From Williamsia sp. 1138 (lineage in GTDB: Bacteria; Actinomycetota; Actinomycetes; Mycobacteriales; Mycobacteriaceae), in assembly GCF_002095435.2 (NCBI RefSeq), contig NZ_MJEJ02000044.1, forward strand, positions 124,001-188,000: DNA of 64,000 nucleotides. The letters run 5' to 3'. The position numbers and the translations under genes were made by a program. Shown piece by piece: positions 53,305 to 59,433 of this stretch (within the stretch, counting starts at the first letter, position 1; every line of letters starts with the position of its first letter). The notes beneath the pieces were generated by a model. That model saw nothing but the letters and a program-made list of their open reading frames with translations, was not told the DNA's origin and did not search any database.

Positions 53305-54473
53305 GTGATCAGCAAAAATCAGCTCCCACCCAGGACGAGCTCGATGCCATGACCAACGATGAGCTGGTCAAACTCGGTACCAATCTCGACGGCGTCGAGG
53401 TCATCCACCGCCGCGAGCGGTTCCCCGAGCCGGGTACGAAGGCCGAGAAGCGCGCTGAACGCAGCGTCGCCTTCTGGTTCGCCCTCTCGGGGATCTCCGC
53501 CATCGCCTGCTTCGTGATCTTCCTGTTCAACCAATGGGAGTTCGTGATGCCCGGCGGCGACAACTACCGGGCGTATCTTCTGAACACCCCGCTGCTCGGC
53601 ATCACCTTCGGCCTGTCGATCCTCGCGATCGGCATCGGCGCCGTGCAGTTCACGAAGAAGTTCATCCCCGAGGAGATCTCGGTCCAGGATCGTCATGACG
53701 GCGGCTCCAACGAGACCGACAAGAAGACGATCGTCGCCGAGCTCGGCGATTCGCTGAACACCTCGACCCTGCCGCGTCGCAAGATGATCATCGGCGCCGG
53801 ACTCTTCGGTCTCGGTACCTTCGCGGTGACCGGCGTGGTCGCGCTGCTCGGCGGCATCATCAAGAACCCCTGGGCCGAGGGTAAGAACTCGCCCCTGTGG
53901 CACACGGGCTGGTCACCGATCTACAACCCACCGGAGAACCCGAACGAGACCATCTTCTTGCGCCGCGACACCGGTAACCCGATGTCCGTAGTGCTGGTGC
54001 GTCCCGAGGACATCGACGCCGGTGGTATGGAGACGGTGTTCCCGTGGCGGGTCTCGGACGGCACCGGCGAGACAGAAGAATCACGGCACAAGTTGATCGA
54101 AGGCCTGCGTTACATCAGCAACCCCGTCATGCTGATCCGCCTTCGCCCCAACGACGCTGCCAAAGCGATCAAGCGTCAGGGCCAGGAGAGCTTCAACTAC
54201 GGCGATTACTACGCGTACACGAAGGTCTGCTCGCACCTCGGTTGCCCGACTTCACTGTTCGAGCAGCAAACGAACCGTATTTTGTGCCCGTGCCACCAGT
54301 CACAGTTCGACGCCCTTGAATACGGCAGGCCCATCTTCGGTCCCGCTGCGCGCTCGCTCGCGCAGCTGCCGATCACGGTCAACGAGCAGGGCTTCATGGT
54401 GGCCGCCGGCGACTTCATCGAACCCGTAGGCCCCGCGTTCTGGGAACGCGGGAAGGGGAAGGATCGACCATGA
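53301..54473 (+). CDS. qcrA: Rieske iron-sulfur subunit QcrA
   Basis: The 390-residue protein has three membrane helices: [40 protein letters not shown] and [21 protein letters not shown]. The 2Fe-2S Rieske motifs CSHLGCPT and CPCHQSQFD ligate the cluster. The first residues are Asp/Glu-rich. ATG at 53301 overlaps the qcrC stop, and the stop overlaps qcrB. Confidence 0.97.
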
Positions 54474-56086
54474 GCAAGATCGGACAGCAGGCCGAGGAAG
54501 TAGATTCCCGGTATCACCTCGCGGCAGGTATGCGCCGTCAGATCAACAAGGTCTTCCCGACCCATTGGTCGTTCCTTCTCGGTGAGATCGCCCTCTACAG
54601 CTTCGTCATCCTGCTGATCTCGGGCGTCTATCTCACGTTCTTCTTCGATCCGTCGATGTCCGAGGTCACCTACAACGGTGCCTACGAACCGCTCAACGGC
54701 GTCATGATGACCAAGGCCTACGAGACGACGCTGAACATCTCGTTCGAGGTGCGCGGTGGACTCTTCGTACGCCAGATCCACCACTGGGCAGCCCTGCTGT
54801 TCGCGGCGTCGATCATCATCCACATGGCCCGCATCTTCTTCACCGGCGCCTTCCGGCGTCCGCGTGAGGCCAACTGGATCATCGGTTGCTTCTTGCTGGT
54901 GCTGGCGATGTTCGAGGGCTTCTTCGGATACTCGCTCCCCGACGACCTGCTCTCGGGCACCGGCGTCCGCGCGGCGATGTCGGGCATCGTCCTCGGTATC
55001 CCCGTGGTAGGCACCTGGATCCACTGGGCACTCTTCGGAGGCCAGTTCCCGGGCGACATCATCATCCCGAGGCTCTACATCCTGCACGTGCTGCTGTTCC
55101 CGGGAATCATCCTGGCGTTGATCGGTGCCCATCTGGCGCTGGTCTGGTACCAGAAGCACACCCAGTTCCCCGGTCCCGGCCGCACCGAGAAGAACGTGGT
55201 CGGTGTCCGCATCCTCCCGGTCTTCGCGGTCAAGTCCGGCGCGTTCTTCGCGGTCACCTTCGGCATCCTCGCGATCATGGCGGGCGTACTGCAGATCAAC
55301 CCGGTCTGGGTCCTCGGGCCATACAACCCGGCACACGTGTCCGCAGGTTCGCAGCCGGATATCTACATGATGTGGACCGACGGTTTGGCTCGACTGATGC
55401 CGGCCTGGGAGATCTACTTCGGTAACGCGTACACGATTCCCGCCATCTTCTGGGTGGTCGTCATCCTGAGCATCGTTTTCGGAATCCTGTTCGCCTACCC
55501 GTTCATCGAGAAACGTCTCACCGGAGACACCGCTCATCACAACCTGTTGCAGCGTCCGCGCGACGTACCGGTGCGTACCGGCATCGGCGCAATGGCGATC
55601 TCCTTCTACATCATCCTGACGATCTCGTGTATGAACGACATCATCGCGTTGAAGTTCCATGTGTCCCTCAACGCGACCACGTGGATGGGCCGTATCGGGC
55701 TGATCATCATCCCGCCGCTCGCCTACTACATCGCCTATCGGTGGGCGCTTGCGCTGCAGCGCAGCGACCGGTTCGTGCTGGAGCACGGCATCGAGACGGG
55801 CATCATCATGCGCCTGCCGCACGGTGAGTTCATCGAACTGCACCAGCCGCTCGGGCCCGTCGACGACCATGGCCATCCGATCCCGTTGCCGTACGAGGGT
55901 GCGGCTCTGCCCAAGCGGATGAACAAGCTCGGATCCGCGGGTGCTCCGGGCACCGGCTCGCTGATGCTGGCCGACCCACCCGAGGAGCAGCAGAAGAACG
56001 TGGAGCTCGAAGCCAAGGCTCATCACAAGGAGCACGAGGCTTTGCGCGAACTCCAGAAGCGCGGCGGAGACCCGTTCATCGACTGA
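54470..56086 (+). CDS. qcrB: Cytochrome b subunit QcrB
   Basis: This is the integral membrane cytochrome b of 538 residues that oxidises menaquinol. It has [47 protein letters not shown] (heme-binding His pairs), and [17 protein letters not shown]. The C-terminal extension of about 130 residues ends [12 protein letters not shown] and includes [19 protein letters not shown]. This subunit binds Q203 and other inhibitors in mycobacteria. A terminator follows. Confidence 0.97.
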
Positions 56087-56100
56087 TAGATCGAACAACC

Positions 56101-56135
56101 AAAAAGGCCGGCCTGCATCAGCGGGTCGGCCTTTT
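56101..56135 (+). terminator. Intrinsic terminator of ctaE-qcrCAB
   Basis: The stem AAAAAGGCCGGCC pairs with GGTCGGCCTTTTT with one G-U pair; an 8-10-base loop and a T-run close it. It sits 14 bases after the qcrB stop and separates the operon from the repeat array. Confidence 0.88.
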
Positions 56136-56180
56136 TCGTGGCCTGGGGTCGCCGGTCCCTCCCCTCCCCCACAGCGGTGC

Positions 56181-56555
56181 GTTCATCGTGCCCTTGTGGA
56201 CGCCGATCGTGCCCTTGCCGACGCCGAGCGTGCCGTTACGGACGCTGAACGTGCCGTTGCAGACGCCGAACGTGCCCTTGCCGACGCCGAACGTGCCGCT
56301 GTGGACGTCGAGCGTGCCGTTGCGGACGTCGAGCGTGCCGCTGTGGGCGCCGAGCGTGCCGTTGCCGACGCCGAGCGTGCCGTTACGGACGCCGATCGTG
56401 CCCTTGCGGATGCCGAGCGTGCCCTTGCGGACGTCGAGCGTGCCGCTGTGGACGTCGAGCGTGCCCTTGTGGACATCGAGCGTGCCGTTGCCGACGCCGA
56501 GCGTGCCGTTACGGACGCCGATCGTGCCCTCGCGGATGCCGAACGTGCCCTTGTT
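56181..56555 (+). repeat. Minisatellite array A (21-bp units, about 18 copies)
   Basis: About 17 contiguous copies of a 21-base unit plus a partial first copy. Each unit joins GACGCCGAxC to GTGCCGTTACG or close variants (GACGTCGAGC, GTGCCCTTGCG). There are no spacers. It begins about 45 bases after the qcrB terminator and ends 15 bases before the GNAT start. In one frame it encodes DAERAVA heptads, in another VPLxTPx heptads. Array B (57080-57370) carries the same unit in inverted orientation. The 21-base length (two helical turns, or 7 codons) keeps all frames open. Confidence 0.95.
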
Positions 56556-56569
56556 ACTCTCTTACGTTC

Positions 56570-57025
56570 GTGAGCAACATCGAAATCGTCAGCTGTCACG
56601 ACCCGGCAGAGTTTCCCGCGCTTGCGCGGATCTGGAGACGTTCAGTTGAATCCACCCATGTGTTCCTGACGCGCGAAGACGTCGATTTCTACGCGCCGAA
56701 GGTGGCCGACAGTTACCTCCCGGCGGTCAACTTACGCGTCGCCAGAATCGGTGGTCGGACCGTCGGGTTCTCAGGTACCGACGGCAACAAGCTCGAGATG
56801 CTCTTCATCGACGACAACTACCGCGGACGAGGCGTAGGTGGAGCGCTGCTCGGCGAGGCGCTCGACCGAATCCCACGACTTGAGCTCGATGTCAACGAAC
56901 AGAACCCCGACGCAGTCGCCTTCTATCGGCGCCACGGTTTCGTGATCGTCGGACGGTCTGAGATCGACGCCGACGGGCGTCCGTTTCCACTGCTGCACAT
57001 GGTCTCCGGCGCAGCGTCGACCTGA
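56570..57025 (+). CDS. GNAT acetyltransferase flanked by inverted repeat arrays
   Basis: This is a GNAT acetyltransferase of 151 residues. LEMLFIDDNYRGRGVGGALLGEAL is the acetyl-CoA motif (RGRGVG) and LELDVNEQNPDAVAFYRRHGFVIVG is the motif B region, similar to the YjaB/PhnO-type group. The substrate is unknown. The GTG at 56570 overlaps by GTGA with the stop of a repeat-encoded open frame (56196-56573), so translational coupling is possible. It is absent from the M. tuberculosis order. Confidence 0.85.
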   Translation: MSNIEIVSCHDPAEFPALARIWRRSVESTHVFLTREDVDFYAPKVADSYLPAVNLRVARIGGRTVGFSGTDGNKLEMLFIDDNYRGRGVGGALLGEALDRIPRLELDVNEQNPDAVAFYRRHGFVIVGRSEIDADGRPFPLLHMVSGAAST

Positions 57026-57079
57026 GGGAGTCCCGAGGACCCACCGCTCGTACACACCGCACGGAACGGTCAAGCGGAC

Positions 57080-57370
57080 AAGGGCACAATCGATGCGCAC
57101 AACGGCACGGTGGGCGGCCACAACGGCACGATCGGCGACCGTAACGGCTCGGTGGGCGGCCACAACGGCACGATCGGCGACCGTAACGGCACGATCGGCG
57201 GCCACAACGGCACGATCGGCGACCGTAACGGCACGGTCGGCGACCGTAACGGCACGGTCGGCGACTGCAACGGCACGGTGGGCGGCCACAACGGCACGGT
57301 GGGCGACGGTAACGGCACGGTCGGCGGCCACAACGGCACGATCGGCGCGCGTAAGGGCCCGGTCGGGGCT
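57080..57370 (-). repeat. Minisatellite array B (21-bp units, about 14 copies, inverted to array A)
   Basis: About 13 contiguous 21-base units plus a partial last copy, AACGGCACGATC followed by GGCGACCGT on the plus strand and close variants. Read on the minus strand its unit differs from array A's at about 1 base in 21, so the two arrays form an inverted repeat around the GNAT gene. It fills the gap between convergent GNAT and aac(2') genes and lies 3 bases from the aac(2') stop. Confidence 0.95.
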
Positions 57371-57373
57371 AGG

Positions 57374-57889
57374 TCACCAGAGGTCGCCTGAGCGCCAATC
57401 ACACGTCAGCTCACCGACAGCAGGGTGCGGGCCTCCGTAGACGAACACGCTGTCCGCGTCGTCCGGTGTGGGGACGACTCCTGTCGGTGTCATCGCAGAC
57501 ACCGTCCCCTCCCAGGGGCGCCAACCGTGCGAGCGGTACAACCGCAATCCGGCTCGGCTCGCACTGAGGGCACCGAAGTCGTAAGCCCCGACGATGACCC
57601 GCTCGATCGCAGTCATCAGTTGGTCGCCGATCCCCTGGTGTTGCCGGCCCGGATCCACAGCGACGGCTTCCACATAGCCGACTCTGCGTGGGATGCCGTC
57701 GATCATCATCGCCCGGGCCACAACCGCGGCATGTCCGACCAGCGCGCCGGCGGCGTCGGTGACGAACGCGTGGACCCCGCCGAGTGCGTGGTCAAAGTCT
57801 GTGTCGGCGAAGTCGCCTGCGAACGCCAGGTCCAGCAAAGCTCTGAGCTCGGTGGCCCGGACTGCACTCAGCTCCCAGGTGTGCTGCAC
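57374..57889 (-). CDS. aac(2')-I: Aminoglycoside 2'-N-acetyltransferase AAC(2')-I
   Basis: This GNAT enzyme of 171 residues is very similar in sequence pattern to M. tuberculosis AAC(2')-Ic: LAFAGDFADTDFDHALGG, GYVEAVAVDPGRQHQGIGDQL, GALSASRAGLRLYRSHGW, TPTGVVPTPDDADSVFVYGG and LTCDWRSGDLW. AAC(2')-I acetylates the 2'-amino group of gentamicin, tobramycin or kanamycin B types; the native role may be in cell-wall acetylation. Resistance is not shown by sequence. The GTG start is inside a long hairpin. It lies 38 bases after ctaF, so it may be read from the ctaCF transcript. Confidence 0.93.
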   Translation of the reverse strand: MQHTWELSAVRATELRALLDLAFAGDFADTDFDHALGGVHAFVTDAAGALVGHAAVVARAMMIDGIPRRVGYVEAVAVDPGRQHQGIGDQLMTAIERVIVGAYDFGALSASRAGLRLYRSHGWRPWEGTVSAMTPTGVVPTPDDADSVFVYGGPHPAVGELTCDWRSGDLW

Positions 57890-57915
57890 GTCGAGGTGCA
57901 GACCTGGGAGCTGAG
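57867..57915 (-). promoter_or_regulatory. Start-codon-occluding hairpin of aac(2')
   Basis: Outer arms CTCAGCTCCCAGGT and ACCTGGGAGCTGAG (14 bp) and inner arms CTGCAC and GTGCAG (6 bp) form a 20-bp stem with a 3-base bulge and a GTCGAG loop. On the minus strand the aac(2') GTG and the first codons are in the 3' arm, the leader in the 5' arm. It starts 13 bases after the ctaF stop and may work as a terminator, a translational lock, or both. There is no T-run. Confidence 0.8.
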
Positions 57916-57927
57916 AGGGTGTGTGTG

Positions 57928-58344
57928 TCAGTGCTTCTCAGGCCCGACGTGGTACTCGAAGACGAGTCCGGCCACTGCACCGATGATGCAGACGGCAGCA
58001 AAGGCCACGAGCCAGAAGTTCGCCATGGCCAAGGCAACAGCGAAAGTCGCGGCGCCGAGTGCGATCAGCACCGGCCACCAGCTACCGGCGCTGAAGAAGC
58101 CCAATTCGCCCGAGCCGTCGGACACCTCGGCGTCTTCGTAATCCTCCGGGCGGATGTCCACCCGGCGGGCCACGAACCGGAAATAGGTTCCGATGATCAA
58201 CGTCAGGCCACCGGTCATGACCAGACCCGTGACACCGACCCACTCGACGTTCTTGCTCGTCAACCCGGTGGCCAATCCGTAGGCGACCGCCACCAGGAAG
58301 AAGAACCCCGTAAGGATCTCGAAGAGCCGCGCTTCAATTCTCAT
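57928..58344 (-). CDS. ctaF: Cytochrome aa3 oxidase subunit IV CtaF
   Basis: The 138-residue protein has four membrane helices; [24 protein letters not shown] and [21 protein letters not shown] lead, then the segment [28 protein letters not shown], characteristic of actinobacterial CtaF (cited in part). It follows ctaC by 18 bases. Rv2199c equivalent. Confidence 0.95.
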
Positions 58345-58362
58345 CTCGTAGCTCCTGGCTGA

Positions 58363-59433
58363 CTAGTTCGACGCTGTCTGGGTGCCGCGTTTGGTATCAA
58401 AAGGCTTGGTCGTGATCGCCGTCGGTGTCTGACCGATCGACTCGAGCGCCTGAGCGTTCGTCGCGTTCGGGTTGGCCTCGCGGAAGTCGATGTAGTCCTC
58501 GAACTGATCCGGGCTCACTGCGCGGACCTCGAAGTTCATCATCGAGTGGTAAGTGCCGCACATCTCAGCACACCGGCCGACAAATGCGCCTTCACGATCG
58601 ATGGAGCTGACCTGGAAGCGGTTGTCCGTGTGGTTCTGCTTCGGGAACGGCAACACGTCGCGCTTGAACAGGAACTCCGGCACCCAGAACGAGTGGATGA
58701 CGTCGGCCGCGGCGATCTCGAACTCGATTCGCTTGCCGGTCGGCAACACCAGGACCGGGATCTCATCAGAGGTACCGATCGTCTCGATCTTGTCGAACTT
58801 CAGGTAGTTGCGAACGTTGTTCTTCTGATCGTCGGGAGCGTTGTGCGCTTCCTCTTCTTCGGTCGGATCGGGCTCGGCGACCTGTGCGTCGTACGGGCTG
58901 CCGTCCTTCTCGAAACCGTTGTAGACCTGGCCGTCGGCCATGGTCACGGTGCGATAGCCGAACTTCCAGTTCCACTGGAAGGCGGTCACGTCCACGACCA
59001 CGTCGGGGTTGGGCTGCTTACCCTCGACATCGTTCTGCACGATGATCGTGAAGTAGAACAGGACCGCGATGATCACGAAGGGGATGGCCGTGTAGGTCAA
59101 CTCCAACGGGACGTTGTATGCCGTCTGCCGGGGGAACTCGTCACCGCCGGGCTTCTTGCGGTGAAAGGTGACGGTCCAGAACGTAAGACCCCACACCAGT
59201 ACACCCATCACGAGGGCGGCGATGACCGACCACGTCCAGAGGTGCCGCATGTCTTCTGCCTCAGGCGTGATGCCCTTGGGCCAGCCGAACCGCAATGCTT
59301 CTTCAGCGCTGCAGCTCGACAACACAAGAGCGCCGACGCCTAGAAAGAAGGCTGCGCTGACTTGCTTGATTCGACGTCCGCGGTGCTGACGCGTAGCCGA
59401 TGCCGGAGGTCGCCCACCGTGTGCCAATTTCAC
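58363..59433 (-). CDS. ctaC: Cytochrome aa3 oxidase subunit II CtaC
   Basis: The 356-residue lipoprotein-type subunit has a signal sequence with lipobox LSSC (Cys about 41) and two membrane helices ([18 protein letters not shown] and [17 protein letters not shown]). A periplasmic CuA domain follows, with [22 protein letters not shown] as CuA ligands. An Asp/Glu-rich insertion ([14 protein letters not shown]) lies between, as in corynebacterial CtaC. It is divergent from asnB, 235 bases away. Confidence 0.97.

What the first reader, a model, noticed from the sequence alone, without database searches (positions are those of the whole stretch)
56181..57370. Two 21-bp minisatellite arrays in inverted orientation bracket a GNAT gene
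Array A (about 18 units, plus strand) and array B (about 14 units, minus strand) share a unit that differs at about 1 base of 21, but they point in opposite directions on either side of one gene. The pair could form a cruciform or a very long RNA hairpin, or work as a phase-locked protein-binding platform (two helical turns per unit). No spacers, so not CRISPR. No other copy was noticed in the window.
Basis: seen in the sequence. Interest (0 to 1): 0.85.

Follow-up and report, generated by a model that had tools for sequence, protein, structure and literature searches.

The report
Phase-locked facing DNA arrays at gene ends
The two repeat arrays around this gene belong to a dispersed, apparently undescribed family of paired, facing 21-base repeat arrays that sit where genes end in some soil bacteria, and their spacing follows the turn of the DNA helix, which suggests that an unknown protein assembles on them.

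Summary
In detail: 18 repeat cores on + (56180-56548) and 14 on - (57084-57368) face each other around a GNAT gene. It is not unique: 31 of 32 regions fetched from this Williamsia-like genome hold 46 such arrays. Eight of 9 genus members and some genomes of three other genera match the core pattern. In the genomes inspected the 12-bp core CGYCGAnCGTGC is shared and the 9-bp spacer is genome-specific. Neighbouring arrays face each other (77 of 93), favour convergent junctions and avoid divergent ones.

Key result: gaps between facing arrays step by the DNA helical turn (about 7, 17, 28, 39, 49, 60, 70, 80 bp; period 10.5; 73 pairs; 81 gaps by a second count). A prediction written beforehand held in 10 of 11 new Williamsia pairs, but 7 of these are orthologues of pairs already used; of the 4 fresh ones 3 fit, and 1 of 2 in another genus.

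Best reading: a platform for an unidentified oligomeric DNA-binding protein marking transcription-unit ends. Protein and function are inferred. The GNAT gene sits inside one unusually long copy, whose own 535-bp gap is off the phase.

The parts
56180..56553 (+). Array A: 18 cores (CGYCGAnCGKGC) every 21 bp, with 9-bp spacers; points towards array B
57084..57368 (-). Array B: 14 cores every 21 bp on the minus strand, facing array A; ends a few bp before the stop codon of the minus-strand gene
56101..56136 (+). intrinsic-terminator-like hairpin with T-run behind qcrB, upstream of array A
   Evidence: own script, (loop of 10 allowed); the stock scan, loops up to 8, found none
54470..56086 (+). 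qcrB (cytochrome b; gene name recalled), upstream neighbour of array A in the same orientation
56570..57025 (+). GNAT acetyltransferase gene enclosed by the arrays (best NCBIfam model NF007807, below its cut-off)
57374..57889 (-). second GNAT gene, a relative of AAC(2')-I acetyltransferases (all scores far below the cut-offs); its 3' end meets array B
56159..56172 (+). C-rich stretch just before array A; the same letters in 5 and a similar stretch in 4 of the nine genus genomes; may mark the edge of the insertion
   Evidence: by eye

Best explanation
The arrays are a DNA-level binding platform. A sequence-specific protein, not identified here, recognises the 12-bp core CGYCGAnCGTGC. Copies two helical turns apart put successive protomers on one face of the helix, so that they assemble head to tail. 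Two arrays meeting head to head, with a gap of a whole number of turns plus a fixed offset, let both rows join into one two-fold symmetric complex. Because the arrays sit behind stop codons or terminators, often between convergent genes, and when one-sided run in the sense direction of the gene before them, the complex most likely acts as a polar boundary: it stops or slows RNA polymerase that runs past a gene end and keeps convergent transcription, or its supercoiling, apart. In the window the platform is unusually long (18 + 14 cores) and a GNAT gene sits inside it. SHOWN: core, 21-bp period, facing pairs, phase of short gaps, position, polarity, spread. INFERRED: the protein, its oligomer, the boundary function.
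For: (1) Gap phase: 73 facing pairs with gaps up to 110 bp, from 124 fetched loci, give best period 10.5 (R 0.83, Rayleigh p 1.4e-22, pairs treated as independent). Modulo 21 there are two modes, 10.44+-0.18, 10.98+-0.28 and 10.53+-0.21 bp apart in Williamsia, G141 and G151, not the 9 or 12 that sharing or abutting 9-bp spacers would give; in G001, however, 17 of 18 pairs are in one class. A second count without chaining cores into arrays gives 81 gaps, R 0.74, p 1.9e-23, significant in each of the five sets. One orthologous junction has gap 49 in G000 (L056) and 59 in G005 (L147), about one turn more. Pooled with new pairs and cleared of similar loops, 73 of 86 remain: period 10.45, bootstrap 10.30-10.75. 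(2) Equal-length loops are 40% identical on average over 219 comparisons, with a few near-copies: length, not sequence, is kept. (3) Core kept between two genera inspected while the spacer differs. (4) 590 of 653 neighbouring same-strand cores within 130 bp are exactly 21 bp apart. (5) Of 129 array sites 67 are convergent, 44 co-directional, 11 divergent, 7 at edges, against 16/68/38 other junctions in the same DNA, p 7e-12; one-sided sites between co-directional genes are sense in 22 of 25, p 1.6e-4. (6) Of 87 arrays with a same-strand upstream gene (64 loci), 56 start within 35 bp of its stop or overlap it, and 11 of the 25 lying 35-260 bp away follow a terminator-like hairpin.
Against: No protein was found and there are no binding or expression data. 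The prediction test is weaker than it looks: 7 of the 11 new Williamsia pairs lie at junctions orthologous to pairs already used; of the 4 others 3 fit, and of 2 in G130 one fits. Gaps above 110 bp (127, 189, 191, 201) were left out of the phase test and do not fit it; the window's own pair (535) and two orthologues (532, 482) fall at 10.0, 7.0 and 9.5 modulo 10.5. Arrays and units were found by their core, so part of the core's constancy is by construction, and in g18 and g16 only the pattern count was seen. Position alone would suit a harmless selfish repeat. 11 of 122 non-edge sites are divergent and 16 of 93 neighbouring arrays do not face each other. Gene calls come from a home-made codon-usage caller.
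Confidence: 0.52

Rival explanations
1. A very long RNA hairpin or bidirectional terminator: transcripts from either side fold the two arms onto each other and stop or are protected.
For: Facing arms can pair; position at gene ends; central loops fold slightly better than shuffles (mean z -0.59, 31 of 37 loops); variable columns match slightly better within pairs (p 0.077 and 0.084).
Against: That covariation is weak; the core is kept across loci, which pairing alone does not need; the 10.5-bp gap phase has no place in an RNA loop; 11 of 25 distant arrays lie behind a terminator-like hairpin; only 8 of 236 arrays have a T-run in or just behind them.
Confidence: 0.12
2. REP-like selfish or mobile repeats: arrays are copied around by an unknown enzyme and survive where they do least harm, behind genes.
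For: Patchy spread between species, genome-specific spacers, gain and loss at one place, a position bias like that of REPs (PMC3733652, passages), arrays sharing a flank with DUF222 genes or remnants in several places, a transposase gene lying between arrays in L227.
Against: Helical phase of gaps with unconserved loops needs a DNA-bound complex; sense polarity of one-sided sites 22 of 25; DUF222 number does not track arrays (21 in G008, which has none); no viral contig matched a three-core pattern.
Confidence: 0.27
3. Ordinary neutral minisatellites that grow and shrink by slippage.
For: Unit number differs between close species.
Against: Same core in different genera, facing pairs, fixed phase, few 20- or 22-bp steps (2 of 653 same-strand steps are 20, none 22).
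Confidence: 0.04
4. Ends of a transposon-like unit (as Tn7-type ends with repeated 22-bp sites, recalled) with the GNAT gene as cargo.
For: Genes lie between facing arrays here, in L040 and L218 (DUF559/MTES_1575-type nucleases) and in L224 (rhodanese-like, below the Pfam cut-off); a transposase-like gene (HTH_38, rve) lies between arrays in L227. GNAT and arrays occur together in 4 of 9 genomes.
Against: Pairs with short phased gaps hold no gene; no transposase ORF between A and B; in G005 array B is missing while the gene stays. In L227 the same unit lies on both sides of the gene, which looks like an insertion into an array.
Confidence: 0.05

Closest known systems
REP/BIME repetitive extragenic palindromes (PMC3733652: listing and passages seen)
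   Same: Dispersed, intergenic, often paired in inverted orientation, mostly between convergent or co-directional genes.
   Different: REPs are 20-40 bp palindromes; here the unit is no consistent stem-loop, is repeated 2-18 times every 21 bp, and the pair gap is helically phased.
BldC direct-repeat binding (PMC5859096: start of abstract and passages seen)
   Same: An actinobacterial protein that binds a variable number of direct repeats head to tail.
   Different: BldC tracts are one turn apart, AT-containing, in promoters; here the step is two turns, the core is G+C-rich and lies at gene ends. No link to BldC was tested.
MIRU/VNTR loci of mycobacteria (recalled)
   Same: Intergenic tandem repeats with variable copy number in the same order.
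   Different: Longer units; no facing, phased pairs that I know of.
Plasmid iterons (recalled)
   Same: Direct repeats about two helical turns apart.
   Different: Iterons sit at one origin beside a rep gene; these sit at 31 places on 23 contigs of one genome.
Polar terminator arrays such as TTF-I sites (recalled)
   Same: Repeated, oriented protein sites behind genes that block polymerase from one side.
   Different: Eukaryotic rDNA; no protein known here.

Membership tests
REP/BIME | unit itself a 20-40 bp palindrome / stem-loop | tested here: not met
   four typical units fold at -1.6 to -5.7 kcal/mol, each differently; the core holds at most a short 4-6 bp dyad (by eye); symmetry exists between facing arrays
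REP/BIME | dispersed intergenic copies, inverted pairs, 3' bias | tested here: met
REP/BIME | associated RAYT transposase | not tested
   not searched
CRISPR | repeats separated by unique spacers of similar length | tested here: not met
   9-bp spacers are alike within a genome
CRISPR | cas genes | tested here: inconclusive
   none among 17 ORFs scanned with Pfam; not searched genome-wide
intrinsic terminator | G+C-rich hairpin directly followed by a T-run | tested here: not met
   at least 6 T in 8 bases in or just behind the array in 8 of 236 arrays; separate hairpins precede 11 of 25 distant arrays
Rfam RNA families | match above gathering score | tested here: not met
   0 matches in window 55000-58500
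MIRU/VNTR | intergenic tandem repeat with copy-number variation | tested here: met
   between four species; strains of one species not available
BldC-type sites | AATTnnnnC repeats, tracts one turn apart (PMC5859096, passages) | tested here: not met
   G+C-rich core, 21-bp step
Iterons | replication origin with adjacent rep gene | tested here: inconclusive
   31 places on 23 contigs; no search for rep genes was made
Transposon ends | transposase, target-site duplication | tested here: inconclusive
   5 of 9 genomes lack the block but are too diverged to read a duplication (by eye); no transposase ORF between A and B; one between arrays in L227

The most novel reading that the evidence does not exclude
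Some Mycobacteriales have bacterial insulators: head-to-head, helically phased arrays at the ends of transcription units on which a dedicated head-to-tail protein filament forms, giving a polar block to RNA polymerase or a fixed boundary between convergent genes. The protein and its core site would pass between genera together while the spacer is free to drift.
Probability: 0.34. Interest if true: 0.9.

Novelty: new variant of a known kind. Interest (0 to 1): 0.73.

Why it matters
If true, it is a DNA-encoded, easily recognised boundary system in bacteria. Its phase rule gives an immediate test (add 5 or 10 bp to a gap), and the core gives bait to catch the protein. It would open the question of how convergent transcription is kept apart in G+C-rich genomes. 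Even if the arrays prove selfish, a repeat family whose facing arrays keep helical phase over dozens of loci in two genera needs a DNA-bound machine.

Tried and rejected
Rfam and phage records: nothing. Plasmid records: 7 weak hits, over adhesin genes, hypothetical proteins and one acetyltransferase; not opened. Five more distant GNAT homologues (one each in G003, G004, G005, G006, G008) have no array in the fetched flanks, so this GNAT family and the arrays are not tied together. DUF222/HNH genes as the cause of the arrays: a match lies near an array in 6 of 32 G000 loci (one with a weak array, L054), 7 of 32 in G141, 0 of 28 in G151 and 0 of 23 in G001, many of these loci being only 1.3-1.6 kb long; but array-poor genomes have comparable numbers of DUF222 matches (e.g. 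G008 21, G016 28, against 20-31 in array-bearing Williamsia): rejected as sole cause. livF locus as vertical descent: doubtful, since G003's protein is 98% identical there against 88% for QcrB. Order-wide search with a related core: 206 of 397 genomes have a match, at most 6 per genome outside Williamsia (135 in G000) and slightly more than the reversed control; no other array-rich genome, but this core would miss the g9 type. Hairpin by arm covariation: only weak support. Alignment A1 used 44 of 54 listed stretches; I left out ten irregular ones.

Literature: nine searches of open-licence PMC papers. No title or start of abstract that was listed describes such arrays, but lists were capped (20 of 82, 8 of 39), only two papers were opened (passages), and subscription papers are not held.

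Full report
WHAT IS THERE. Array A (18 cores, +, 56180-56548) and array B (14 cores, -, 57084-57368) face each other around a GNAT ORF. Array A follows qcrB and a terminator-like hairpin; array B ends a few bases from the stop of the next, minus-strand gene. Both have a period of 21 bp without indels. The window lies in contig C41 of a 6.08-Mb genome.

NOT A SINGLE CURIOSITY. BLAST with array A finds 36 places in the same genome, two of them the arrays here, and a two-unit pattern 98 matches against 1 for the reversed control. Of 32 fetched regions 31 hold arrays, 46 in all. Eight of 9 genus genomes have a BLAST match. With two cores 21 bp apart and up to one mismatch, 14 of 201 family genomes have 11 or more matches: seven of genus g1, G130, G141 and G151 of g9, G050, G067 and G109 of g18, and G023 of g16. 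G003, G045 and G097 have 5, the others 0-3. The reversed control is 1 in four genomes and 0 in the rest. An order-wide search with a related core found no other rich genome. The genera g9, g16 and g18 are not named by the tools; in g18 and g16 I saw only counts.

ANATOMY. The edges of arrays and an alignment of 44 three-unit stretches (of 54 listed) place the unit as a 12-bp core, CGYCGAnCGTGC (T sometimes G), plus a 9-bp spacer; arrays usually begin with the core (by eye). The core is the same in G141 and G151 of g9, the spacer differs by genome; since units were found by their core, its constancy is partly by construction. Neighbouring arrays less than 250 bp apart face each other in 77 of 93 cases; 10 are on one strand and 6 diverge. 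Of the three divergent cases seen, two lie between two facing pairs.

HELICAL PHASE. The gap between the last + core and the first - core takes values near 7-9, 17-20, 27-30, 37-41, 48-51, 59-63, 69-70, 80 and 95 bp. Unit gain and loss can give steps of 21 but not the second class half a unit away. The class separation is 10.4-11.0 bp in three sets, and the best period over 73 pairs is 10.5, p 1.4e-22. G001 alone would not show it, with 17 of 18 pairs in one class. Counting without chaining cores gives the same (81 gaps, p 1.9e-23). Loops have no common sequence, apart from a weak dyad in G001 and a few near-copies. I wrote a prediction, fetched 40 new regions and got 13 pairs: 10 of 11 Williamsia pairs and 1 of 2 G130 pairs fell in the predicted range. 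A later check showed that 7 of the 11 lie at junctions orthologous to pairs already used; of the 4 fresh ones 3 fit. So the test confirms less than the first count suggests. Four gaps above 110 bp were left out and do not fit; nor, clearly, does the window's 535-bp gap. In G001, five same-strand neighbours are 31-32 bp apart, again whole turns.

POSITION AND POLARITY. Of 129 array sites 67 are convergent, 44 co-directional, 11 divergent and 7 at fragment edges; other junctions in the same DNA: 16, 68, 38. One-sided sites between co-directional genes run in the sense direction in 22 of 25; some one-sided arrays have a decayed partner below the threshold (L034, L039, L046). Arrays start where the transcription unit ends: within 35 bp of the stop or overlapping it in 56 of 87, or behind a terminator-like hairpin in 11 of the 25 that lie 35-260 bp away.

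TURNOVER. At the qcrB end, G000, G002, G005 and G007 have the GNAT gene with arrays of very different copy number (array B missing in G005); G001, G003, G004, G006 and G008 have neither gene nor arrays there. The block thus looks like a gain in one clade. Other genes enclosed by arrays are DUF559-type nucleases in two genera, a rhodanese-like gene and a transposase-like gene.

WHAT IT MEANS. A core kept between genera while neighbouring bases differ, exact two-turn spacing, and phased facing pairs with free loop sequence are what a DNA-bound oligomer requires and what an RNA hairpin does not. A polar boundary at transcription-unit ends is the simplest use of such a complex at such places; it is an inference. 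A selfish REP-like element that carries its own DNA-binding machine remains the main rival.

LIMITS. Gene calls are home-made. 164 loci were read for gaps: 124 and 40.

Noticed in passing
L086, L107 (NZ_JNYV01, 'Kitasatospora arboriphila NRRL B-24581'): The contig length 800,383 equals that of a contig of G006, which the genome set places in the window's genus, with QcrB 88% identical to the window's: the record seems to be mislabelled or contaminated.
   Followed up: partly
L042, L049, L052, L064 (G000): Four arrays share one 5' flank type; in L042, L049 and L052 a DUF222 gene or remnant follows at 145-257 bp, in L064 only the flank was seen: as if copied together.
   Followed up: partly
L040:3162-4007 and L218:2196-3269: Two DUF559/MTES_1575-type nuclease genes with AbiEi-like parts, in two genera, both enclosed by facing arrays; the start of the L218 ORF is uncertain because it runs through an array.
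   Followed up: no
L227:1094-2547 (G151): A transposase-like gene (HTH_38, rve) lies between two arrays of the same orientation with the same unit on both sides, like an insertion into an array.
   Followed up: no
L041, L149, L065: Another dispersed repeat (containing CGCTCCGCTTCGC) lies inside or beside arrays.
   Followed up: no
56159-56172: A C-rich stretch behind the qcrB terminator: same letters in 5 and similar in 4 of nine genus genomes (by eye).
   Followed up: no
57374-57889: The minus-strand GNAT gene resembles AAC(2')-I acetyltransferases, with scores well below the curated cut-offs.
   Followed up: no
L155, L156, L157: A livF-type gene beside a facing pair is 98-100% identical in G000, G002 and G003, although QcrB is only 88% identical in G003: likely transfer of the segment with its arrays.
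   Followed up: partly
G001 loops of 28 bp (e.g. L154, L282, L286): The central loops share a weak dyad, CGAA..TG...CA..TTCG (by eye).
   Followed up: no
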